Notes under the pieces: generated by a model | Database searches by the model: none | What the model saw: the letters and a program-made list of their open reading frames with translations, nothing else | What the model was told of the DNA's origin: nothing | Made by a program: the position numbers and the translations under genes | Assembly: GCA_021817225.1 (NCBI GenBank) | Contig: JAKAVR010000008.1 | Span: forward strand, 1-47,811 | Direction: 5' to 3' | Length of the DNA: 47,811 nucleotides | Source: Thermoplasmata archaeon | GTDB taxonomy: Archaea; Thermoplasmatota; Thermoplasmata; Sysuiplasmatales; Sysuiplasmataceae | Part shown: in pieces, positions 384 to 38,197 of the stretch | Position numbering within the stretch: the first letter of the stretch is position 1 | Layout: every line of letters starts with the position of its first letter

Positions 384-713
384 GTGCTCGTTCAGGAGGC
401 GCGGTGCAGTCTGAGCTGCACCAGATTATATCCACACAGTTGTGGTGTGGAGACTCCGAGAGAGGACGGCCATCTCTTCTTCCAGTTCGTATCGCACAGA
501 TACGAACGTGCAGGCACGGTCTACACGAGCAACAAGACATACTCGGAATGGGGAGAGGCGCTCGTGTACGGGGTGATGGCGCCTGTGGTGCTGGACTGGA
601 TACTGCACCATTCCACGACTGTGAACATAAGGGGAGAGTCTTACAGGCTGAAGGACAGGAGGAAGTCCGGGCTGCCGACGGTGAAGGCAAAGGTGAAGGG
701 TGAGGCGAAATGA
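384..713 (+). pseudogene. IstB (IS21 helper ATPase) C-terminal fragment
   Basis: From about codon 28 onward the frame matches the C-terminal third of IstB, the AAA+ helper of IS21-family transposition. Visible landmarks are LFFQFVSHRYE, the TSNKTYSEWGE sensor-1 region, VLDWILHHS, and the terminal RGESYRLKDRRKSG. The Walker A and B motifs and the whole N-terminal part are missing. The first ~27 codons show no IstB similarity, so the left junction lies near 450-470. No IstA gene is present. This is a dead remnant, consistent with IS debris on both sides. Confidence 0.7.
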
Positions 714-1535: not shown

Positions 1536-3398
1536 CTAAGGCCAAGCATGCCAACCAGAGTCCCCTGGTGGCCATATCGACAGGTGAGGACTCTCAAACC
1601 ACTCAGCCAATATCCCCTCGTAAATGTTGTAAAATGGGAAATATTCAAAGGCTCCACCAGGCACATAATACTCTTGTCCATTCCACATTTTGTATTGATC
1701 AGAGTAAAAACCCGTTTCCATGTAGAGCCAATTAATGCCTGCAAACCAAGAAAACGTAAAGCCCCCTTCGATGTACAATCCAATATTACCGTTTGAATTC
1801 TGATAGTTGCCCATGTCGTAAAGGTACCATCCAGCTACTGCTAGCAAAACAGGAAAGGCAATTGAAGAAGCCAAGCCAACAACCGCCATGTACGCCAAAT
1901 AAGCGAGGCCAAATGAAGCAACCATCGTACTCAGGAAGGTAATAAGTGAGCCGATGCTTGATATTGCATAAGGAACATATCCAACCGAACTGACCATTTC
2001 TGCAAATCCCCACCAATAGTACTTCTTGGTGTAAACTGGGTCCAAAGTAAAACTGATGGGATCGCCATTAAGGCTAATGGTCCCGTTTCCATTCATTATT
2101 ACAGCCGTAAAATATTCCCTCGAACTACCATTCATCATATAACCAGTGATGTTTCCATTGATTGCCACTAAGGTCTGATTGGGATCGCCAAGAAGGACGA
2201 AGCCAGAAGCAGTCCTATTATTACTGGACGCATTGAATGTTACATTTTCATCGCCGTTTGATAAAGCAAGGTATGTAGCGTTGGAAAATTCGGCTATGGT
2301 GGAATTTTCATACGAAGTGGCGTTAGTTGGATTTGCATCCGAATTGTAATACTGCATTTCCAGTGTCCTATTTGCGTAGTCTGATCCAAGAGATTTTGTC
2401 GAAGTCTGCGTGATGAGGTTAGCGAATTGCCTGTAAGTGTCGTTCAGTGTGGTTGTGTTTGTCCAGCTCTCATCATAGTTCGAACCATTGCGGGCGACAT
2501 ACGTGCTATTTGTCAGGTTGATCGTCGAATTCCCGGTTGATGTGGTCGTTGAGTTCAAATCGGTTTGCCAAAATGTGAAAGAATACGTAGTGTTGTTCAA
2601 AACCAAAGCACCGCCGGCACTGTCGTTATAGTAACCGGACACATTATCTGCAGTGTAAGTGAACCCTGCCATATCAATACTCGAATAGTTCCAGTTAGGA
2701 TTGAAGTAGTTAACAAGCCTCTTTATGCTGCTCACTGTCGTGCTGTTGTTGACGAAGTATACTTCGAGTTCTACACTTTTGCCATTAACGGTCACCGAGC
2801 TGGATGCCGGGATGGGCGAGTATTGGTTCAGCCTGCCAATTGAATACGAGAACGTCCCGTCCGAAACACCAACAGCGATGCTCGTGCCAGTGGTAGAATA
2901 TGAACTGCTGCCAAGTTTCGCAGTCCACTGTGTCCCTGCGGGCAGAGCAGAACTGCTGTTTTGAGCGAATGTAACCTTATATGCGGAGCTGTAAGTGACA
3001 TCCACTGTCTCTCCCTGCGTACCTATGTTGAGAGTGCCCGAGGAAGGGGAGGGCGTGGTTCCGAACACTGTTGACACTGAGTATGTGTACTTCGTATTCT
3101 CAGCAGCATCAAACTGTATTTCCCATGTTGTGGAACTCTTCGTGCTTGGAAAACCGCCGCTGGGTGTCATTGTAACGGACCACGATGTCCCGGAGGTTAG
3201 ACCTGTTTCGGCGAAGTTCACATAAACAGCTCCGGGAATGACGTTCGGTGAATGTGGCGACGCGCTTTCCACGCTCCTCCCTCTACCGGGCAGTGGAAGG
3301 ACAGCAACACCCGGCACACTCAGAAGCATCAACAGGGCGGCAAACGCAGCAAATGTCACGATGGCTATGGGCACGTGCTCTTTCTTCCAATCAAACAA
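1536..3398 (-). CDS. Large glycosylated-type surface protein with two repeated beta domains
   Basis: The 620-residue protein starts with a charged stretch and a hydrophobic export or anchor segment (about residues 9-35). Two related domains follow, led by YVNFAETGLTSGTSWSV and YKVTFAQNSS..LPAGTQW. This repeat type is common in secreted Thermoplasmata proteins. Residues about 215-450 hold dozens of N-x-S/T sequons, suggesting heavy N-glycosylation outside the cell. Residues about 470-530 are hydrophobic and could be membrane helices, and a Trp/Tyr-rich tail ends in SPHLSIWPP..GWHAWP. The start is TTG at 3398, chosen because AGGAGG lies 8 bases upstream. Function is unknown; a cell-envelope role is inferred. 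A truncated copy lies at 12,765-13,083. Confidence 0.75.
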   Translation of the reverse strand: MFDWKKEHVPIAIVTFAAFAALLMLLSVPGVAVLPLPGRGRSVESASPHSPNVIPGAVYVNFAETGLTSGTSWSVTMTPSGGFPSTKSSTTWEIQFDAAENTKYTYSVSTVFGTTPSPSSGTLNIGTQGETVDVTYSSAYKVTFAQNSSSALPAGTQWTAKLGSSSYSTTGTSIAVGVSDGTFSYSIGRLNQYSPIPASSSVTVNGKSVELEVYFVNNSTTVSSIKRLVNYFNPNWNYSSIDMAGFTYTADNVSGYYNDSAGGALVLNNTTYSFTFWQTDLNSTTTSTGNSTINLTNSTYVARNGSNYDESWTNTTTLNDTYRQFANLITQTSTKSLGSDYANRTLEMQYYNSDANPTNATSYENSTIAEFSNATYLALSNGDENVTFNASSNNRTASGFVLLGDPNQTLVAINGNITGYMMNGSSREYFTAVIMNGNGTISLNGDPISFTLDPVYTKKYYWWGFAEMVSSVGYVPYAISSIGSLITFLSTMVASFGLAYLAYMAVVGLASSIAFPVLLAVAGWYLYDMGNYQNSNGNIGLYIEGGFTFSWFAGINWLYMETGFYSDQYKMWNGQEYYVPGGAFEYFPFYNIYEGILAEWFESPHLSIWPPGDSGWHAWP

Positions 3399-4525: not shown

Positions 4526-5425
4526 TTACGGAACAATATTGGTCCAGAAATCGAAGAACGCCCACACCTCGGCCTCCCTGTATCCTATCTTCTGATATGC
4601 CTTTATTGCAGGCGCATTGTCAGTCCTGACATAGAGCATAGATCTTTGCGCATTCCGCAGGACTTCCATTGTGGCTGCCGAAGTCACTGCGGTCCCGTAA
4701 CCTTTTCCCCTGTGCTCACGCGCGGTGAATACGCTGCCCACCATGCCTATAAGGCTGTTTCCGGCAAAGGCGGTTGCCACGGAAACAATTTCACCGCCGG
4801 CCCTGATTCCGAAGATTGACTGTGTTTCGAGCGATTTCCTGTAAGAGTCGACTGAATTGAAGGCTGTCCTCGATGCGAATTCACCTGAAGAGTACAGCTC
4901 GTAGAGAGCTTGTGCATCTGCAGGAGAGAGCCTTTGTGCATGCTCCGCGCCTGACGCATGCAAGAAACCGCGATCCACTACCAAGAGATGCTCAAGGTAT
5001 GAGGGGGCATCGGGAAAGATGCTTCTGACGACAGGCAAAAGATGGTTTGGGCATGTCATTATCGACGGCCCTGACTTCAGGCTCCCGAGCAATTCAGCTG
5101 CACCTTCGGCATCACCGGCCAGCCGGTAGATTGAGAGTGTGTCCTGATACAGGTGAAGATAGGCGACAATCCGCCCTCCCTTTCTTGCCACGTGGAGAGT
5201 GCACTTCTCAGGCTCACCGAGGAGGTCGATGGCCGCATAAGTGTCGATCGATCCTGCCGTGCCAAGCTGCGGTGCAATGGCGGTGTAGTCGCCAGGATCA
5301 ACCTTCTGGACTGTCAAGGTCATTTTCTGCACACCAGGATCATTTGCCGTTCGAATGAGATGGGCGTTCAGTATTTCAGTCTGCGGACCAGTCGTGGAGG
5401 TAGGGACTGTCACGGCCACTGACAA
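4526..5425 (-). CDS. GNAT-family N-acetyltransferase
   Basis: The 299-residue protein ends in a GNAT fold that transfers an acetyl group from acetyl-CoA to an amine. Residues about 205-295 hold the family pattern: IGMVGSVFTAREHRGKGYG (the pyrophosphate-binding R/Q-x-x-G-x-G/A loop, here HRGKGYG), a following helix, then LYVRTDNAPAIKAYQKIGY. The first ~200 residues look like a degenerate second GNAT-like half, as in FR47-type proteins. The substrate is unknown. The listed start is a TTG; the ATG at codon 35 (base 5323) is a good alternative because similarity begins about there. It is the intact neighbour of two broken genes. Confidence 0.8.
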   Translation of the reverse strand: MSVAVTVPTSTTGPQTEILNAHLIRTANDPGVQKMTLTVQKVDPGDYTAIAPQLGTAGSIDTYAAIDLLGEPEKCTLHVARKGGRIVAYLHLYQDTLSIYRLAGDAEGAAELLGSLKSGPSIMTCPNHLLPVVRSIFPDAPSYLEHLLVVDRGFLHASGAEHAQRLSPADAQALYELYSSGEFASRTAFNSVDSYRKSLETQSIFGIRAGGEIVSVATAFAGNSLIGMVGSVFTAREHRGKGYGTAVTSAATMEVLRNAQRSMLYVRTDNAPAIKAYQKIGYREAEVWAFFDFWTNIVP

Positions 5426-6169: not shown

Positions 6170-8257
6170 ATGATGACAGAAGGAGAGCCGCCGCGTAACA
6201 AGTCCATCAGGACAATGTCCGGTGGAACGGAGGCTATGAAGCAGCTCTCCAGGGAATTGAGGGAAGGTGAACAGTCCGCAATCGTCGTGCTGGAGCACGA
6301 TGGTTCCGAAGGCAAGTTCCGCGGATACATCTCCTTCAAGAAGGGAGCCATAGTCGAGGCGCTGTACAAGGCTACGGCGAAGGATGGCAGCTCAAGCTCC
6401 AGGAGTGGAAAAGAGGCGCTCAGAAGGGTCTGGAGAGAAGCGCTGGATCCACTTGTCAGGATGAAGGTATACAGCATCGAGCCCAGGGAAGAAGAACCGA
6501 AGGATGCAGAAGGCACAGATAACATGCCTGCGACAGTAACGGCAAGGAAAGTCAAGAAGCTGAAAAGCGAAGGACAGGAAGACGCCATGGTTGCACAGGT
6601 CACGGTCTGGAAGGAGGAGGGCTACGCAGTAGACGACCTGCTTGAAAAGATGAAGGCGGAAGACCAGAACTCTTTCCGCATTTACATGGAATACGACGCA
6701 AAGATCAAAAGGCTCAAGAATCTGGAAGGGGCGCTGAAGGAACTCGAGGGAAGAGGTTTTGACGGGGACTTTCAGAGGCTTTCAGGGCTGGCCAAGGAAC
6801 CAACCAAGGTGGCAGAGCTTGAACTTGGCATGGCGCTGCTTAAGAGAAAAGCAGAAAACAGGAAAAGCAGGCAGATGCCAAAACAGGATACGGCGAGCGA
6901 CTACGACGAGGTCTACAGTGTCATCTTCGGAACGGAGAGCGCGGGGCCAGCCGACGGGAAGTGTCCCAACTGCGGTGCAAAAATGGTGTCGGCCACATGT
7001 GACATTTGCGGTCATTCAATTGGACCGGAGAGCAACGGCGCTACGGGCTTGAACACTGCGTTGAATTTCGACAATTTCGTTGTCGGCTCCAGCAACAAGT
7101 TTGCCTACGCGGCATGCATTTCAATTGCCAATTCAAGTCCGGACCAGTACAATCCGCTCTTCATTTACTCTGCACCGGGGCTTGGAAAAACTCATCTCCT
7201 CAATGCAATTGGCAACCAGATAAGAGAGGAGAGGAAGGGCTACCGTGTCATGTACACGGGAGCAGAGAAACTGGTTGACGAGCTGATTGCACCGACAAAG
7301 GAGAAAGGAGACGGCTATGCCTCAACACTCAGAAAACTCGACTTGCTACTGATAGACGACATACAGTTCATTTCGGGAAAGGATGAAGCGCAGAATCTGC
7401 TGCTTGGTGTCATGAGTTCACTCCTCAGGGACGGCAAGAACGTTGTCATCTCGGGCGACATGCAGCCGAAGGACATACAGGGTCTGGAGAGCCAGCTTGT
7501 GGCGAGGCTCGAATCGGGACTGCTCGTTGACATGAGGCCTCCCGACATGGAAACGAGAATCAGGATACTCGAGCAGAAGATAAGGGAGGAGAAGTACCAG
7601 ATGCCGCAGTCTGTGCTGAAGTTCATTGCCGAGACAGTGGATGACAACATAAGGGAGCTGACAGGCTCGCTGAACAGGGTCGTTGCGTACAGCACGCTTA
7701 TGAAAATACCGCCGACAGTGGAAACGGCAAAAAGGATACTGAAGATCGCACCACAGGAACAGAGGAAGGAGACGAAGGCGAGGATAGAACTTCGCCCGGG
7801 GCATGGCTACCTGATTGAAGAGGACAGGGCAAGCATGTGCCACCTGCTTGTGCAGGAGAAACTGGGGGAGAACTGGATTGCCCTGGACATTTCGAGAGTA
7901 AACCCCACCAGGCTTCGCACAAAGTTCCCCGGCCTGGAGAAGGCGCGCGTCGTATGGCTGACGGATCGGGAGAGCGACCGCGAAATCACTCTCCAGCCTT
8001 CTCTTGAGAAGATAGAGTTTGAAATCAGGGGATTCATGGAGTCCGCATCAAGAGAAAATACGAGGGCAATAGTCAACATTGACGACCTGCAGTATGTTGT
8101 AAGCAACACAAACTTCGAAGGAACGGTCAGACTGCTGAGGAGGACAGTCGATGAGATGTCCGAGCGCAATTCGGTGCTTATCATCTCGGTTGGAAAGGAA
8201 ACACTGGCCAAGCAGGAGATAGCGATCCTTGAACGGGAGCTTGAACTCATACAGTAG
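6170..8257 (+). CDS. DnaA-type AAA+ ATPase with zinc ribbon and DUF835-like C-terminus
   Basis: A 695-residue soluble protein. Residues about 20-105 form a small N-terminal domain reminiscent of PATAN/DUF4388-type domains, and 135-240 are charged and helical. A zinc ribbon has Cys265, 268, 277 and 280. Residues 298-525 match the bacterial DnaA AAA+ core closely: NFDNFVVGSSNKFAYAA, Walker A GLGKTH (337-342), the initiator-specific segment YTGAEKLVDEL, Walker B LLLIDDIQF with Asp396-Asp397, RLESGLLVDMRPPD with its candidate arginine finger, and sensor 2 NIRELTGSLNRV. The DNA-binding domain IV of DnaA is absent. Residues about 545-690 resemble DUF835 instead (GYLIEE..., VVWLTD, VNIDDLQYVV). Archaea start replication with Orc1/Cdc6, so this is more likely a DnaA-derived regulator or signalling ATPase. 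ATG 6173 is an equal start. Confidence 0.85.
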   Translation: MMTEGEPPRNKSIRTMSGGTEAMKQLSRELREGEQSAIVVLEHDGSEGKFRGYISFKKGAIVEALYKATAKDGSSSSRSGKEALRRVWREALDPLVRMKVYSIEPREEEPKDAEGTDNMPATVTARKVKKLKSEGQEDAMVAQVTVWKEEGYAVDDLLEKMKAEDQNSFRIYMEYDAKIKRLKNLEGALKELEGRGFDGDFQRLSGLAKEPTKVAELELGMALLKRKAENRKSRQMPKQDTASDYDEVYSVIFGTESAGPADGKCPNCGAKMVSATCDICGHSIGPESNGATGLNTALNFDNFVVGSSNKFAYAACISIANSSPDQYNPLFIYSAPGLGKTHLLNAIGNQIREERKGYRVMYTGAEKLVDELIAPTKEKGDGYASTLRKLDLLLIDDIQFISGKDEAQNLLLGVMSSLLRDGKNVVISGDMQPKDIQGLESQLVARLESGLLVDMRPPDMETRIRILEQKIREEKYQMPQSVLKFIAETVDDNIRELTGSLNRVVAYSTLMKIPPTVETAKRILKIAPQEQRKETKARIELRPGHGYLIEEDRASMCHLLVQEKLGENWIALDISRVNPTRLRTKFPGLEKARVVWLTDRESDREITLQPSLEKIEFEIRGFMESASRENTRAIVNIDDLQYVVSNTNFEGTVRLLRRTVDEMSERNSVLIISVGKETLAKQEIAILERELELIQ

Positions 8258-8339: not shown

Positions 8340-8868
8340 ATGAAGCTCGCACAGATGGACCTCTCTTACGAGATACGCAAGTTATCCGAGTCAATTACAC
8401 CAGAAGAGAACAAAGAAAGAATAAGAGAATTTATACATCTTATCCAGGGCAGTACATGCAACAGAAAAGTCTGAGAGAGCCAGAAAGTATGCCCGCACTG
8501 TTGCAAGCAGGAAACTCCAAGTAATGCTTGAAAGGAGATGGAAGAACGGGGATGCTACACACATAGCCGCCGAACTCAGACGGTGGTTCGGAATGCTCTT
8601 CATGTTCCTGCAGCGGCACAACGTACCATGGCACAACAACCGTGCCGAGAATGCGATAAGGCAAGGCGTACTCCACCGCAAGATAAGCGGCGGAGGGAGG
8701 ACATGGAATGGTGCACATGTGCTGGAATGCATTATGTCGGTATACAGGACATGCAGGAAAAAGAAACAGGACTTCAAGGGCAACAGTCCTGTCATCACCG
8801 GTAAGAGGGGGTTACAGGGAAAGAATCACTCGATTGCCAGTGCCGTGAAGGTGAGTAGTTACGATTGA
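8340..8868 (+). pseudogene. IS66-family transposase, C-terminal remnant with frameshift
   Basis: The frame from about 8425 to 8868 contains VPWHNNRAENAIRQGVLHRKISGGGRTWNGA and LECIMSVYRTCRKKK, the hallmark C-terminal block of IS66 (TnpC) transposases, including the last acidic residue of the catalytic triad in RAENAIR. An upstream stretch from ATG 8340 (MDLSYEIRKLSESI...) is in another frame and ends at TGA near 8471, so at least one frameshift separates them. The N-terminal two thirds are missing. TnpA and TnpB are not seen. Confidence 0.75.
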
Positions 8869-9067: not shown

Positions 9068-9796
9068 CTATTCGAAATTGTACACAACAAGAGTTAGTTC
9101 GCAACCGACCGGCTCAGCCAGACCCTTCAGCGTGGCATATAGATGAAAGATGTAACTGGTTGGACTGTTGCTGCTTGCGATTTGGATCAGTGTGTACCCA
9201 GCGAAACAGAAGTGATAATATCCATTACCCGAGGAGGTTTCGTTGAGCAACTTACCTGCCAATGAAAGCGAGCCATTGTTGCCGCTAAGAGAGAAGTTTG
9301 TGTAATATCCAGTGGGAGGATTGTTCGGAGGAATGCTATCCCATGTTATCAAAGAGACATTTTCGCTGGGCGGAGAATCCCAATATGTAGGTTGTGGCTC
9401 CGCCCATTGGACATTTGTATTATTGCCATAGTCGTTTAGGGAAAAAACAATATAATCAGGACTAAAGGCCATGCTTATATTGCCTGTTATGTTAGTGTAC
9501 ACTTCCCAGAATATGTTGCCGTTAGCGTCTTTATTTGAACCAGTGTCCAGAACTGCAGAGAACGTCAAGGTTGAATTCGTGTTGGTTTTGTCTGATCCAT
9601 AGAAGTAACTGGTCACATTTGCCAATAGAGATGAATCGGTCCCATTGTTGCTAATTGTCGTCGTGTTCCAGTATAAGAATTTCGAACTCGAATTATTTCT
9701 AGTCGTCAAAGCAGCAAGGGGCTGTGGTATCATCGCAGCAATCAAGACTATAGCCCCAATGCTGACTACCGCGAACGTAAGAATTACCTTCTTCAT
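9068..9796 (-). CDS. Secreted asparagine-rich protein
   Basis: Starting at ATG 9796 (MKKVILTF), the 242-residue product has a classic signal peptide: Lys-Lys, then a hydrophobic core to about residue 24 and AxA-like LAALTT. The mature part is rich in Asn, Ser and Thr with many N-x-S/T sequons, and has no C-terminal anchor. No family is recognised. The frame runs 42 codons further upstream, but that extension would bury the signal peptide, so the inner ATG with GGGAG upstream is preferred. It shares composition with the other surface proteins of this region and is probably glycosylated and exported. Confidence 0.65.
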   Translation of the reverse strand: MKKVILTFAVVSIGAIVLIAAMIPQPLAALTTRNNSSSKFLYWNTTTISNNGTDSSLLANVTSYFYGSDKTNTNSTLTFSAVLDTGSNKDANGNIFWEVYTNITGNISMAFSPDYIVFSLNDYGNNTNVQWAEPQPTYWDSPPSENVSLITWDSIPPNNPPTGYYTNFSLSGNNGSLSLAGKLLNETSSGNGYYHFCFAGYTLIQIASSNSPTSYIFHLYATLKGLAEPVGCELTLVVYNFE

Positions 9797-10010
9797 TCCA
9801 AGCCACTCCCTTAACATCTTGTTACCACACTCCGACAAGAGTTCAAGTCTTGGCCCCGCTTCATTTCGCTTATGCTTTGAGCTATGTCCCGGTGATTTGC
9901 AGCCATTAGAGATCGCTTGCACTTTATATATAGATACGCCGCTGCATCAATTTGTTGAGTCCAACTTGGGATTTCATGCATTAAATTCACATCACTTCAT
10001 TCTTGATACC

Positions 10011-10883
10011 TCAGGCCTGCTTGTCATCGAATAACAGCCCATTAGCTATGTAGTCGCCTCCGTGGGTGGTTCCATTAGGAAAAGCCGGAGCGGCAGAGAT
10101 ATCATAAACCGCAAAGGTACCGTTTAGAATTGAAATATTGACAATGGGAAGCCACGTTGCATTCAGTGGGTCGAATACTTTCATCGTAGTATTCAGCTTT
10201 CCAAGAACGAGCCACTCATCTGTTCCATTCTGTAATTGAACATATAAAGGCTGATCATGTCTCCCGGAAACACCAACAATGCCGTCAATTTCCCATACTT
10301 GGGTCACATTAGATACAGTGATTCCAACAACAGTGCCTCTCACAAACGAGCCGCTTGTTATGTTATACGACATAATTTGCGAACCCACACTCAAGTTTTG
10401 CACCTGTGTGTCACCTCCCCCCGCCAGAGATATTTCTGCCCCATTAAGAACACAACCCGGGGGTATGTAATAATAAGTCAACGATGCGCTCCACGAATTG
10501 ATCGTGTCCATAACAATAGAAATGCTCCCTTCCACCGTGTTATATTGGGGTGCACTCGCACTGAGTGAGTAATCTTCAGAGCCAGCAAAGGCCATTTGGT
10601 AATTGTACACGGTGTTGGAATTTGTGAAAGCGACGAGTGAGTGACCGTCATAAGATGCCGTGACACTTGCATCCAAGATGGGGACACCGCTGGAACTGTC
10701 TTTTATCTCACCTCTCAAGACCCCTGCCGGGATGAATACGGTCGGGATCCCCTGCGAATCTCCAACGAAATTCTTGCCTGTATTGGAATTGGAGGTCACA
10801 CTTGATGAAATATCATTCATAGGCGAATTCACGATATGACCCCAAGACATCGGTGTATGAAGCGGACACACTATATGTCGCAC
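10011..10883 (-). CDS. 3' part of a frameshifted surface protein (carboxypeptidase-regulatory-like domain)
   Basis: This frame overlaps the end of the preceding surface-protein gene. The first ~25 codons are antisense-like filler (RHIVCPLHTP) and there is no signal peptide. From about 10,830 it reads as a normal extracellular protein: VFIPAGVLRGEIKDSSSGVPILDASVTASYDG, a carboxypeptidase-regulatory/peptidase-associated beta domain, followed by YYYIPPGCVLNGAEISL and several sequons. Such a domain also ends the upstream frame, and the two join smoothly if one base is gained or lost near 10,815-10,835. It is best read as the C-terminal half of one protein of about 680 residues. Confidence 0.55.
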   Translation of the reverse strand: MRHIVCPLHTPMSWGHIVNSPMNDISSSVTSNSNTGKNFVGDSQGIPTVFIPAGVLRGEIKDSSSGVPILDASVTASYDGHSLVAFTNSNTVYNYQMAFAGSEDYSLSASAPQYNTVEGSISIVMDTINSWSASLTYYYIPPGCVLNGAEISLAGGGDTQVQNLSVGSQIMSYNITSGSFVRGTVVGITVSNVTQVWEIDGIVGVSGRHDQPLYVQLQNGTDEWLVLGKLNTTMKVFDPLNATWLPIVNISILNGTFAVYDISAAPAFPNGTTHGGDYIANGLLFDDKQA

Positions 10884-12030
10884 CAGGCATGGCGAAAAAG
10901 TGCCAACCTCCAGAAGAGTTCGTCATGAGCTGAAAGGCTGCAAGTTCGTTGTTCATCTTCTGAACAAGTATGACCGGAACGTTTGCCGCTGGAAAACCCG
11001 ATGCAAAATTGACATATCCGCCAATGGAGACAGCTGGACTCAGATTTATGTTGAACTCTGTAGAAGTGCCATTCTGATATTGGTATCCAAGCTTGGTGTT
11101 CTCAAGCACCTCATTCTGTGCGAAAAGGGTGATGGTGCTGGGTCCTATATACTGAACAACTGATGGGAAGTTTGAAATTTGAATCAGTACGTATGCCCCA
11201 ATTCCGAACACGTTATCTCCTGCTGGTGAATTTGAGTCCACTGTGGTCCCGTTATCTACTTTCATCCACGCGTTATTTGATCCGGGCCCTCCAAATTGGT
11301 TGATATTTGAAGGGAAGGGACCATTTAGGAGTAATCCTGCTGCGCCAATACCTAACGAAAACGGGTACCCAAAAGCACCTACACCATCGATCCCAGACAG
11401 TTCTGCGAGTAGCAAAAGAGGTTTGATGCCCGATTCAATTGCATAAGTCAATGTATCATACGACTTGCCATTGTCTGCACCTGTGGTGGCGTTTAGCCCA
11501 GAATTGTAATATGATTGCCATTGGGTCACTACACTACTGGCTCCGGTTCCGTTTATTTGCGTTTGAATGCCCATCTCCTGCCAGCCAGTGCCATAACTGA
11601 TTCCCGGATATTGCTGAGTCCACTGATTAGAAACACCTACTGACGAAAGATAAAGCTCGATCCAAAAATGATGTGATGGATCCTGAGAAGCATAGTAATA
11701 ATTCGAAGAATTTGGTGATGTTGTTGAGAGATTAAGTTGTAATGCATTAGGTATTCCAAGAGAGTTGTTGTTCGAGAGTTGATAATTTGAAGCCCCAGGC
11801 GACCCGCCCTCTTGATCCAAAATCGGAAACGACTGCGGATCCTGTGTCAAATAAACGGTTTGATTCCCGTTGTAACCGAGCCAATCATGAAGTATCGGTG
11901 ACTGACCACTTGCCAAGCCAATGACTCCCGAGAAAACAAAGAATGCCATTGAAAGCATCGATGCCAAAATGACAAGTGTTGAAAAAACTCCGAAACACCT
12001 TCTCTGTCGACTACGAATCTGATTTGGCAT
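10813..12030 (-). CDS. Secreted surface protein, N-terminal part before a probable frameshift
   Basis: The product from ATG 12,030 (MPNQIRSRQRRCFG) has a basic start and a strong hydrophobic export segment (about residues 12-40), then a long extracellular part with many N-x-S/T sequons and aromatic patches. The middle (residues about 100-190: HHFWIELYLSSVG..WTQQYPGISYGTGWQEMG) looks like the glycoside-hydrolase- or lectin-like fold seen in thermoplasmatal secreted proteins, but no catalytic family can be named. A regulatory-type beta domain (SIGGYVNFASGFPAANVPVILVQ) is cut short at TGA 10,813-10,815. The ATG at 12,030 is chosen over 12,072 because GAGG lies 6 bases before it. Confidence 0.65.
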   Translation of the reverse strand: MPNQIRSRQRRCFGVFSTLVILASMLSMAFFVFSGVIGLASGQSPILHDWLGYNGNQTVYLTQDPQSFPILDQEGGSPGASNYQLSNNNSLGIPNALQLNLSTTSPNSSNYYYASQDPSHHFWIELYLSSVGVSNQWTQQYPGISYGTGWQEMGIQTQINGTGASSVVTQWQSYYNSGLNATTGADNGKSYDTLTYAIESGIKPLLLLAELSGIDGVGAFGYPFSLGIGAAGLLLNGPFPSNINQFGGPGSNNAWMKVDNGTTVDSNSPAGDNVFGIGAYVLIQISNFPSVVQYIGPSTITLFAQNEVLENTKLGYQYQNGTSTEFNINLSPAVSIGGYVNFASGFPAANVPVILVQKMNNELAAFQLMTNSSGGWHFFAMPGATYSVSASYTDVLGSYREFAYE

Positions 12031-12154
12031 TCCTTTCCTCTTTATTCCACCAGCTGCCAACTGATTTTTCATACGGCTCCGATTCCAGGGGTGGGTGTTC
12101 TCAACGGCTCAGCGTTCCAACTAGTAATGTTGCAGTGAAACTCCCCACTCCACG

Positions 12155-13655: not shown

Positions 13656-13970
13656 TCATTCGCCTATTGCAGCCTTCAGCTGATTCACGGTCTCGCTCAT
13701 TTCCATCAGCACGCCCTTGAGGTGCTCAAGGAACGGTTTTATCTCGTCCGTGGTTACCGCCCCGTTCGGAGAAGGAACTATGAGCCCCTCCTGTTCGAGT
13801 ATCCTGAGCGAATATCTCACCTTGTGCTGCGGATAGCTGAGCATTTCAGACAGTTTCAGTATCCCGATGGGCTGATTCCCAATGATTGCTTTCAGGACAG
13901 CAACATGCCTCTTCAGGAGATCTATCTCGACTTCCATCTTGCTGGTGAGTGAGTTTTTTTCAGGGTTCAT
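13656..13970 (-). CDS. Winged-HTH transcriptional regulator
   Basis: The 104-residue protein has a leading helix, then a winged helix-turn-helix at about residues 22-72 (VLKAIIGNQPIGILKLSEML..PQHKVRYSLRILEQEGLIVPSPNGAVTT). A C-terminal amphipathic helix (FLEHLKGVLMEMSETVNQLKAAI) probably forms the dimer interface. The pattern is that of small archaeal regulators with no ligand domain. It stands alone, 70 bases from tRNA-Asn, and has a perfect palindrome over its own promoter, so autoregulation is likely. Targets are unknown. Confidence 0.75.
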   Translation of the reverse strand: MNPEKNSLTSKMEVEIDLLKRHVAVLKAIIGNQPIGILKLSEMLSYPQHKVRYSLRILEQEGLIVPSPNGAVTTDEIKPFLEHLKGVLMEMSETVNQLKAAIGE

Positions 13971-15626: not shown

Positions 15627-16604
15627 TCAGGTTCCTTCAAAGACAAGTTCCAGTGCACCAATGTCGACAACAGAGTCCGGAAATCTGGAGACAAGTATGC
15701 TTGCTGGCCGGGTCCGCCCTCTTGCGAGACCCTTCATGGTATAGAATTCGACCTTCTTCCTGAGATATTCTCCCTCCCTGGCAACACCGCCTCCCAGGAC
15801 TACAGATGAGAAATCCATGAGCATCAGGGCTCCGGAGATTGCCGTTCCGAGATAGCGGCATGCATTCTCGACAAGTTCTGCAGCAAGAATGTCTCCCTTT
15901 CGCGCTTCTTCGAAAACAACGATGCTTGACACCCTGCCTCCCCTTTCCAGTGCCCTGCGGCGGAGGGAGGTCTCCTCCACTTTCATCCTTTCAAGTGCAA
16001 TTCTTTCAATGGAGCTGCCCGAAGCAACCGTCTCAAGACATCCTGATTTGCCGCAGCCGCATTTCCGGCCCCGCTCAATGACTGTACTGTGACCAATCTC
16101 CCCTGCCATGTGGTTGGCACCCTCGTACGGTTTACCGTCTATCACAATCCCCGCACCGATGCCAGTGCTTATTGTGATGTACAGCATGTCGCCAGCTCCT
16201 GCAATTCCGCCGTGCCTGTATTCTCCAAGTGCACCCACGTTGGCATCATTATGCACCCGGACGCGCACTCCAGTCTTCTTCTCAAGAAGATGACGGAGGG
16301 GGACATTTTCCCAACCCTGTATATTAGGCGCATAGAGCACGGTTCCCTCCTTTCCGTTCACGGGCCCTGCGAATGCAACACCAAGACCCATGCAGTTTTT
16401 CATCGAGAGGCGGTTTTTTTCCACCAGGCCCGATATCATTCCTGAAAGCTCGTTTATCAGCGACTCAGGTTCCTTCATCCTGTCGGTCATGTCTGTGAGC
16501 TTGTCAGATATCTCTCCCGGCCTGTAGCCAAGTGAAAGAGACACTTTTGTCGCACCTATATCACAAGCAAGAGCGAACTTCCTGTTTGAATTGTCTGAGG
16601 GCAT
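15627..16604 (-). CDS. ROK-family sugar kinase (glucokinase-like)
   Basis: The 325-residue protein has the ROK fold. ATP-binding loop 1 is CDIGATK (14-20), GVAFAGPVNG follows at about 75-84, the catalytic base Asp120 lies in VHNDANVGALGE, and GTGIGAGIVIDG-type phosphate binding is at 146-157. The ROK zinc site has His172 in GEIGH and Cys182, Cys184 and Cys189 in CGCGKSGCLE. VVLGGGVA is the adenosine motif. Such archaeal enzymes phosphorylate glucose or an N-acetyl hexosamine. There is no DNA-binding HTH, so it is an enzyme rather than a repressor. TATA-like AGAATATAGT lies about 30 bases upstream of the ATG, so the mRNA is probably leaderless. Confidence 0.88.
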   Translation of the reverse strand: MPSDNSNRKFALACDIGATKVSLSLGYRPGEISDKLTDMTDRMKEPESLINELSGMISGLVEKNRLSMKNCMGLGVAFAGPVNGKEGTVLYAPNIQGWENVPLRHLLEKKTGVRVRVHNDANVGALGEYRHGGIAGAGDMLYITISTGIGAGIVIDGKPYEGANHMAGEIGHSTVIERGRKCGCGKSGCLETVASGSSIERIALERMKVEETSLRRRALERGGRVSSIVVFEEARKGDILAAELVENACRYLGTAISGALMLMDFSSVVLGGGVAREGEYLRKKVEFYTMKGLARGRTRPASILVSRFPDSVVDIGALELVFEGT

Positions 16605-38019: not shown

Positions 38020-38106
38020 GCAGGTGTAATCTAGTCTGGTTAGGATTTTGGCCTTCCATCTTCGGGATGAAAGCCAACAAGTCGGGTTCAAATCCCGACA
38101 CCTGCA
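38020..38106 (+). tRNA. tRNA-Gly (TCC) with a 13-base intron
   Basis: Acceptor GCAGGTG/CACCTGC, T-arm TCGGG/CCCGA and a weak D-arm ATC/GAT are present. The anticodon stem TTGGC/GCCAA closes CTTCCAA when 13 bases (about 38,059-38,071) are removed after position 37, giving anticodon TCC. The removed part contains CATC...GATG around TTCGG, able to form the local helix of a bulge-helix-bulge. Spliced length is about 74. Intron borders could shift by a base or two. No clear TATA element was seen upstream. Confidence 0.85.
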
Positions 38107-38197
38107 CCTGGACCTTCTCCCAGTGACGGAGGAATGGCAACTTGCCTTGAATCCCGAAGGCGTGGTTGAAAGAACCTGATTCCGGTCGTGAAATCAC

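What the first reader, a model, noticed from the sequence alone, without database searches (positions are those of the whole stretch)
6170..8257. Bacterial DnaA-type AAA+ core in an archaeal protein, fused to a zinc ribbon and a DUF835-like domain
Residues 298-525 carry every DnaA-class landmark (entry motif NFDNF, GLGKTH, initiator-specific helix, LLLIDDIQF, sensor 2 NIRELTGSLNRV). The DnaA-box-binding domain IV is missing and a DUF835-like domain takes its place. Archaea use Orc1/Cdc6 for origin work. The protein may be a transferred DnaA/Hda-like ATPase turned regulator, membrane-signal reader or replication control factor. It sits in an accessory region but looks intact.
Basis: partly seen in the sequence, partly recalled or inferred. 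Interest (0 to 1): 0.8.

Follow-up and report, generated by a model that had tools for sequence, protein, structure and literature searches.

The report
Archaeal DnaA-core ATPase in signalling scaffold
Many archaea of one phylum carry a gene in which the motor part of DnaA, the bacterial starter of chromosome copying, is built into a different protein that has lost the origin-recognising part; it is ancient, conserved and unstudied, and most likely works as a regulatory switch rather than as a replication starter.

Summary
Window 6170-8257 encodes 695 aa: a weak PATAN/DUF4388-like N-terminus, a helical linker, a zinc ribbon, a genuine DnaA domain III (model against B. subtilis DnaA: 1.4 A, 43% identity) and DUF835, a RecA/KaiC fold without a P-loop. 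DnaA domains I and IV are absent, and domain IV is absent from the whole genome, which carries two Orc1/Cdc6 genes. The core lies with DnaA, not DnaC/IstB. Direction and number of transfers are unresolved.

It is not an accessory oddity. About 105 of 300 genomes of its class carry an orthologue, most with the same architecture and a conserved neighbourhood. The modules also travel apart. In two other families, probably Poseidoniia, PATAN-DUF835 and a degenerate DnaA core are adjacent genes (6/6 loci). In Methanomassiliicoccaceae the core was lost while PATAN-DUF835 stayed in the same slot. Catalytic and inter-subunit residues are kept; the ssDNA residue V211 (E. coli) is not kept across the family.

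Best reading: a DnaA ATPase reused as a nucleotide-dependent assembly switch in a PATAN/DUF835 regulatory complex, not an origin initiator. Biochemical function is untested. I found no paper describing it.

The parts
6170..8257 (+). Complete CDS, 695 aa, PATAN-like / helical linker / zinc ribbon / DnaA domain III / DUF835
6209..6478 (+). N-terminal beta-rich domain (aa 14-103), PATAN/DUF4388-like; tentative identity
   Evidence: DUF4388 E 7e-4, 20.1 bits, below cut-off; modelled with pLDDT about 78-93 over this stretch; same domain in class orthologues and in separate genes of f47/f55
6575..6874 (+). Helical linker (aa 136-235), possibly coiled coil
   Evidence: predicted structure
6959..7018 (+). 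Zinc ribbon CPNC...CDIC (aa 264-283)
   Evidence: sequence; weak DZR/Zn-ribbon matches
7049..7768 (+). DnaA domain III: AAA+ core plus lid (aa 294-533)
   Evidence: PF00308 6e-49; Foldseek to 8bv3: TM 0.95 on target, 1.4 A, 43% identity
7169..7192 (+). Walker A (aa 334-341, K340)
7259..7336 (+). Initiator-specific two-helix segment (aa 364-389)
   Evidence: length 29 as in bacterial DnaA, Hda 20; helices 365-372 and 377-388 in the model
7343..7360 (+). Walker B (aa 392-397, D396/D397)
7505..7507 (+). Arginine-finger equivalent (R446 = E. coli R285)
   Evidence: role of R285 from PMC12122000
7652..7654 (+). Sensor 2 arginine (R495 = E. coli R334)
7790..8254 (+). DUF835 domain (aa 541-695), RecA/KaiC fold without P-loop
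   Evidence: PF05763 2e-18; model pLDDT 95.5; Foldseek best hits FlaH, RecA, KaiC
4526..5425 (-). GNAT acetyltransferase, upstream neighbour shared with family members
13656..13970 (-). Small winged-helix protein (CggR_N-like), same domain as the gene next to the orthologue in relatives; displaced here by a 5-kb insertion
15627..16604 (-). ROK-family kinase, downstream neighbour shared with family members

Best explanation
A DnaA domain III, which looks bacterial, has been built into an archaeal regulatory protein. Shown by sequence and structure comparison: the ATPase site and the residues that let DnaA subunits read each other's ATP (arginine finger, sensor 2) are kept; the DNA-addressing parts of DnaA (domains I and IV) are gone; the partner modules are a PATAN-like domain and a DUF835 domain, a KaiC/RecA fold without a P-loop. 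Inferred: ATP binding makes the DnaA cores self-assemble, and hydrolysis releases them. This changes how the PATAN-like and DUF835 ends are presented to partner proteins, perhaps KaiC-family ATPases, one of which is encoded close by in several orders. The protein would be a nucleotide-driven assembly switch in a signalling complex, not an origin initiator; Orc1/Cdc6 presumably does that work.
For: Domain match and near-identical fold to DnaA domain III. Walker A, Walker B, sensor 1, arginine finger and sensor 2 kept in 35-42 of 43 orthologues and in the window. V/I at the E. coli V211 position, which is needed for single-strand binding (PMC12122000), in 13 of 14 bacterial DnaA but 7 of 38 orthologues (p = 1.4e-6). 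No domain IV in 23 genomes. Two Orc1/Cdc6 genes in the genome. Functional coupling of the modules: fused in the class; adjacent same-strand gene pair PATAN-DUF835 then DnaA core in 6 of 6 loci of f47/f55, in genomes with only two DUF835 copies each where counted; DnaA core followed by a DUF835 gene in G364; DnaA core overlapping a DUF2226-wHTH gene in G511. The core is dispensable while PATAN-DUF835 stays: one clade of 14 core-less Methanomassiliicoccaceae-type proteins nested among core-bearing ones in the same syntenic slot. Arginine finger and sensor 2 are lost in f47/f55. DUF835 called an inactive KaiC, with REC-DUF835 signalling proteins in Thermoplasmata and Methanomicrobia (PMC5847659).
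Against: The window protein itself keeps I373 (V211 equivalent) and K404, so single-strand DNA binding by this member is not excluded; R245 varies in bacteria too. The zinc ribbon could bind DNA. The PATAN assignment is below Pfam cut-off. No partner protein is identified for the window locus. The gene keeps company with gyrB/gyrA, an Lhr-type helicase and an OGG-type glycosylase, genes of DNA metabolism. No biochemical data exist.
Confidence: 0.5

Rival explanations
1. A replication control factor: the DnaA core interacts with the initiation machinery (Orc1/Cdc6, MCM or the clamp) or with chromosomal DNA through the zinc ribbon, in the way that Hda acts on DnaA in bacteria, and times initiation.
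For: Family resemblance to initiators; conserved neighbourhood with gyrB/gyrA, an Lhr-type helicase and an OGG-type glycosylase; K404 and I373 kept in the window protein.
Against: The neighbourhood also holds thiC and other unrelated genes and is unchanged where the DnaA core is lost. The core is lost or degenerate in whole lineages that keep PATAN-DUF835. No DnaA-box enrichment in the window. Hda models fail their cut-offs.
Confidence: 0.2
2. A DnaA-type origin-opening ATPase still at work, addressed to DNA by its zinc ribbon or by a partner instead of domain IV, acting beside Orc1/Cdc6.
For: Core fold and initiator-specific segment intact; in Altiarchaeota-phylum genomes DnaA cores are fused to, or next to, apparent winged-helix domains (winged helix by eye).
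Against: V211 position not conserved in the family, R245 position is E406 in the window; no domain IV; the archaeal initiator is present; core lost in some relatives.
Confidence: 0.1
3. A control protein of type IV pilus-like or archaellum-like surface machines: PATAN addresses a motor ATPase, DUF835 mimics the KaiC-like ArlH/FlaH, and the DnaA core gates the complex.
For: PATAN response regulators act on the T4P motor ATPase PilB in cyanobacteria (PMC7690835); the best PDB match of the DUF835 model is FlaH; one relative has a transmembrane anchor with an Fn3-like ectodomain.
Against: Nearest PDB match only reflects the RecA/KaiC fold (TM 0.67, 11% identity); no pilus or archaellum genes were recognised among the recurring neighbours; PATAN identity tentative.
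Confidence: 0.15
4. Annotation or assembly artefact: bacterial contamination or a chimeric contig.
For: Most carriers are metagenome-assembled genomes; one bin (G026) does carry an apparently canonical bacterial DnaA with domain I.
Against: Orthologues in about 105 of 300 genomes, archaeal neighbours, archaea-typical DUF835 and PATAN-like domains fused in the same frame, and single-contig chromosomes CP070732 and CP070748.
Confidence: 0.01

Closest known systems
Bacterial DnaA (TIGR00362 / PF00308), domain III
   Same: AAA+ core and lid fold, initiator-specific two-helix segment, Walker A/B, sensor 1, arginine finger, sensor 2; TM 0.95 and 43% identity to B. subtilis domain III
   Different: No domain I, no DnaA-box-binding domain IV, score below the equivalog cut-off; fused to PATAN-like, zinc ribbon and DUF835; V211 position drifting in the family
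Hda (TIGR03420)
   Same: A DnaA-type AAA+ core without domain IV, used as a regulator
   Different: Hda lacks the initiator-specific segment (20 against 29 residues); TIGR03420 89.5 bits against cut-off 194.8
DUF835 / inactive KaiC (iKaiC) signalling proteins of archaea (PMC5847659)
   Same: C-terminal domain, fold and missing P-loop; REC-DUF835 and REC-PAS-DUF835 signalling proteins are known
   Different: The DnaA core as partner domain is not among the DUF835 architectures in that paper's table, which covered response regulators only
PATAN / DUF4388 and DUF2226 proteins
   Same: Similar N-terminal module at the edge of detection; DUF2226 near cut-off in L083, above it in the L209 partner
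   Different: Below cut-off in the window protein; no REC domain
Archaeal Orc1/Cdc6 (TIGR02928)
   Same: Initiator-clade AAA+
   Different: No match of TIGR02928 to the protein; the genome has two separate Orc1/Cdc6 genes

Membership tests
Bacterial DnaA (replication initiator) | Domain III AAA+ core with DnaA-class signature | tested here: met
   PF00308 6e-49; Foldseek 8bv3 1.4 A; tree
Bacterial DnaA (replication initiator) | Domain IV, DnaA-box binding (PF08299) | tested here: not met
   absent from the protein and from 23 genomes of the phylum, present in all 10 bacterial controls
Bacterial DnaA (replication initiator) | Domain I (DnaA_N) | tested here: not met
   no match up to E = 1
Bacterial DnaA (replication initiator) | Curated equivalog score | tested here: not met
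   TIGR00362 278.9 bits against 343.9
Bacterial DnaA (replication initiator) | Initiator-specific segment between beta2 and Walker B | tested here: met
   29 residues, two helices in the model
Bacterial DnaA (replication initiator) | ssDNA-binding residues V211 and R245 | tested here: inconclusive
   window I373 and E406; family-wide V/I at 211 in 7 of 38, bacteria 13 of 14; R245 also variable in bacteria
Bacterial DnaA (replication initiator) | Binds and opens the chromosomal origin | not testable with these tools
   needs biochemistry or ChIP
Hda | Hda profile score | tested here: not met
   TIGR03420 89.5 bits against 194.8
Hda | Short beta2-Walker B segment without initiator helices | tested here: not met
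   29 residues against 20 in E. coli Hda
DnaC / IstB | Grouping with DnaC/IstB in a tree of the core | tested here: not met
   DnaC and IstB fall together, apart from all DnaA and archaeal cores (99/98)
Orc1/Cdc6 | TIGR02928 match | tested here: not met
   not among the matches of the protein; genome hits lie on other contigs
DUF835 (inactive KaiC) | PF05763 over cut-off, RecA/KaiC fold, no P-loop | tested here: met
   66.9 bits against 33.1
PATAN / DUF4388 | PF14332 over cut-off | tested here: inconclusive
   20.1 bits against 25, E 7e-4 on the isolated N-terminus

The most novel reading that the evidence does not exclude
An archaeal lineage runs a second, DnaA-derived initiator-class ATPase beside Orc1/Cdc6, addressed to DNA by a zinc ribbon or by partners instead of domain IV, so that a bacterial initiation motor has been grafted onto an archaeal chromosome cycle.
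Probability: 0.1. Interest if true: 0.9.

Novelty: new variant of a known kind. Interest (0 to 1): 0.62.

Why it matters
Current reviews treat DnaA as the bacterial initiator and Orc1/Cdc6 as the archaeal one (PMC11880632, PMC3984812). Here a DnaA domain III with its catalytic residues is a stable part of about a third of the genomes sampled from a large archaeal class, and DnaA cores also occur in other families of the phylum and in the phylum of an Altiarchaeota genome. It shows that the DnaA motor can be separated from origin recognition and reused. The recurrence of the same partners, by fusion, by adjacent genes and by selective loss of the motor, makes the role of the motor testable. It is also an annotation hazard: some of these proteins pass NCBI's DnaA equivalog cut-off (L072, 367.7 against 343.9 bits) and could be named replication initiators although they lack domain IV.

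Tried and rejected
DnaC/IstB origin: rejected by the tree and the initiator-specific segment. Contamination: rejected by fused architecture and synteny. DnaA boxes near the gene: 2 in the window against 1.02 expected, both about 28 kb away. Hidden domain IV elsewhere: none. One clade of bacterial against archaeal cores: neither shown nor rejected (AU p = 0.415). Proximity to gyrase as a sign of transfer with the bacterial dnaA-gyrB-gyrA block: not supported, because the slot is kept without the DnaA core and gyrase was not found beside the DnaA cores of the other families within the stretches fetched. PF00308 hits in archaeal control genomes: three archaeal controls ring over that cut-off but not over the DnaA equivalog cut-off; a weak hit of this sort in G013 is a double-AAA Cdc48-like protein and three others are IstB-like, so such hits were not counted. 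A split DnaA core in G026 (f15) proved to be an apparently canonical bacterial DnaA with domain I in a bin with N runs, so the second apparent core loss (L063/L145) is not relied on. A proposed DUF835 link 5-6 kb from the DnaA core in f41 is too loose to count. First named search with a broad DUF835 alignment failed for lack of conserved stretches. Archaeal phyla other than Thermoplasmatota and that of the Altiarchaeota genome could not be surveyed.

Full report
THE OBSERVATION. Window 6170-8257 (+) is an open frame of 695 codons from ATG to stop. Pfam finds the bacterial DnaA ATPase domain at residues 294-454 (6e-49) and DUF835 at 569-691 (2e-18). NCBIfam's DnaA model matches 248-535 at 8e-83 with 278.9 bits, below its equivalog cut-off of 343.9; Hda, IstB and DnaC models match far more weakly. 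Residues 264-283 hold a CPNC...CDIC zinc ribbon. An AlphaFold2 model from 32 orthologues gives well-ordered separate domains, mean pLDDT 82. Foldseek places the core on B. subtilis DnaA domain III at 1.4 A rmsd, TM 0.95 on the target and 43% identity, then on T. maritima and A. aeolicus DnaA and, much lower, Hda. The two-helix initiator-specific segment is there (helices 365-372, 377-388) and has the DnaA length of 29 residues; the E. coli Hda segment has 20.

WHAT IS MISSING. No DnaA domain I or IV matches the protein. PF08299 (domain IV) is absent from the whole own genome and 22 others of the phylum, while it is found in all ten bacterial control genomes. The own genome carries two full-scoring Orc1/Cdc6 genes on other contigs. 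Two DnaA-box consensus sites in 48 kb, both about 28 kb away, are what chance gives.

THE DUF835 END. On its own it models at pLDDT 95.5. Its nearest solved structures are FlaH, RecA and KaiC (E about 1e-5, TM about 0.6-0.67, 10-14% identity). The P-loop position reads GHGYLIEED and no Walker A motif is conserved in the family. This fits the description of DUF835 as an inactive KaiC domain in archaeal signalling proteins (PMC5847659). The N-terminus resembles PATAN/DUF4388 below the Pfam cut-off; the same domain in another family of the phylum approaches DUF2226. I call it PATAN-like and treat the name as tentative.

RESIDUES. I mapped published E. coli DnaA positions on an alignment of 14 bacterial DnaA, 43 distinct class orthologues and 19 other DnaA cores of the phylum. 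Walker A K178, Walker B D235/D236, sensor 1 D269, arginine finger R285 and sensor 2 R334 are kept in 35-42 of 43 orthologues and all in the window protein. At V211, which DnaA needs to hold single-stranded origin DNA (PMC12122000), 13 of 14 bacterial proteins have V or I, but only 7 of 38 orthologues (p = 1.4e-6; related sequences, so the p value is optimistic). R245 differs too (E406 in the window) but is variable even in bacteria. The window protein itself keeps I at 211 and K at 243. So ATP use and subunit contact look preserved, while single-strand DNA binding looks relaxed in the family and is undecided for this member.

TREE. DnaC and IstB separate from all DnaA and archaeal cores with 99/98 support. 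Within DnaA the order of bacterial and archaeal sequences is unresolved: grouping all bacterial DnaA costs 2.1 log units, AU p = 0.415. A bacterial source is the natural inference, given that DnaA is otherwise bacterial, but one or several transfers cannot be told apart here.

DISTRIBUTION AND NEIGHBOURS. By my count of rows at E <= 1e-40, about 105 of 300 genomes of the class carry an orthologue, most with full-length architecture. Named hits include Candidatus Sysuiplasma, whose family the window belongs to (the window orthologue in MAG YF1.bin95 is 97% identical over the DUF835 end). Across families the gene lies in a conserved neighbourhood: gyrB and gyrA on the opposite strand 4-9 kb upstream, thiC, a zinc-ribbon helical gene converging on it, then an OGG-type glycosylase and an Lhr-type helicase; in other orders a KaiC-family ATPase and a helical zinc-ribbon gene stand about 3-4 kb downstream (gene names by sequence, Pfam-checked for the KaiC ATPase and zinc-ribbon genes only). 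In the window's own family the shared neighbours are a GNAT gene upstream and a winged-helix gene and ROK kinase downstream; in the window a 5-kb insertion with an IS66 remnant separates them. The gene is therefore not accessory.

THE MODULES TRAVEL TOGETHER, AND APART. (a) Fused: class orthologues, and f38/f48 in the rest of the phylum. Three of these genomes were counted for DUF835 and have two copies each. (c) G364 has a DnaA-core gene followed 75 bases later by a DUF835 gene. (d) In genome G511 of the phylum of an Altiarchaeota genome, a 491-aa DnaA-core gene overlaps a DUF2226 gene with an apparent winged helix at its end; genome G517 has apparent winged helix, helical stretch, DnaA core and helical stretch in one frame. 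(e) Loss: 14 Methanomassiliicoccaceae-type proteins of about 340-370 aa have PATAN and DUF835 but no DnaA core. They form one clade (99) nested among core-bearing proteins (97) and those with flanks lie in the same gyrB-thiC-OGG-Lhr slot. The PATAN-DUF835 pair is thus the constant part and the DnaA motor the removable one.

OTHER ARCHITECTURES. In further families DnaA cores follow an N-terminal helical segment (about 420 aa), a 900-residue helical array and precede zinc ribbons (about 1250-1400 aa), or follow an Fn3-like domain and a transmembrane helix (L076, L101). Some pass NCBI's DnaA cut-off (L072).

MECHANISM. Shown: domain content, kept and lost residues, linkage, loss. Inferred: ATP-driven assembly of DnaA cores changes the presentation of the PATAN-like and DUF835 ends to partner proteins. 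KaiC-family ATPases are candidate partners because one is encoded nearby in several orders and DUF835 shares their fold. I give this 0.5. Rivals are replication control (0.2), control of a type IV filament machine (0.15) and a working origin-opening ATPase (0.1).

NOVELTY. The DnaA core and DUF835 are known domains. I found no paper in the library on this combination or on DnaA cores in archaea; reviews assign DnaA to bacteria only. The library is not the whole literature. I rate it a new variant of a known kind.

Noticed in passing
L089-L093, L100 (f47/f55): A PATAN-DUF835 gene directly upstream of a gene with a DnaA core that has lost arginine finger and sensor 2, in 6 of 6 loci; probably Poseidoniia.
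   Followed up: yes
L209:7949-10680 and L208:6871-9259: DnaA cores in two genomes of the phylum of an Altiarchaeota genome: one overlaps a DUF2226 gene that ends in an apparent winged helix, the other is fused to an apparent winged helix.
   Followed up: partly
L076:7850-9454 (-), L101:4995-6587 (-): DnaA core behind a signal-peptide-like start, an Fn3-like domain and a transmembrane segment: an apparently membrane-anchored DnaA core.
   Followed up: partly
L072:9975-14198 (-): 1407-aa archaeal protein with long helical array and zinc ribbons scores over NCBI's DnaA equivalog cut-off without domain IV, so it is liable to be annotated as the replication initiator.
   Followed up: yes
L062:8379-9212: In bin G026 a DnaA with domain I, apparently bacterial, stands next to a gyrA-like frame with N runs; the bin looks chimeric.
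   Followed up: partly
window 384-713 and 8524-8868: Remnants of an IS21 IstB gene and an IS66 transposase flank the region; the IS66 remnant begins 267 bases after the gene.
   Followed up: partly
window 1536-3398, 9068-9922, 10011-12072 (all -): A group of long Ser/Thr/Asn-rich, apparently secreted proteins, two of the stretches in the 5-kb insertion that separates the gene from its usual downstream neighbours.
   Followed up: no
window 38020-38108: ARAGORN reports a tRNA with a four-base anticodon (tcca); probably a false call.
   Followed up: no
genome G000: About ten DUF835 domain matches in one 2-Mb genome, in frames of about 200 to 1350 aa: an expanded signalling-domain family.
   Followed up: no
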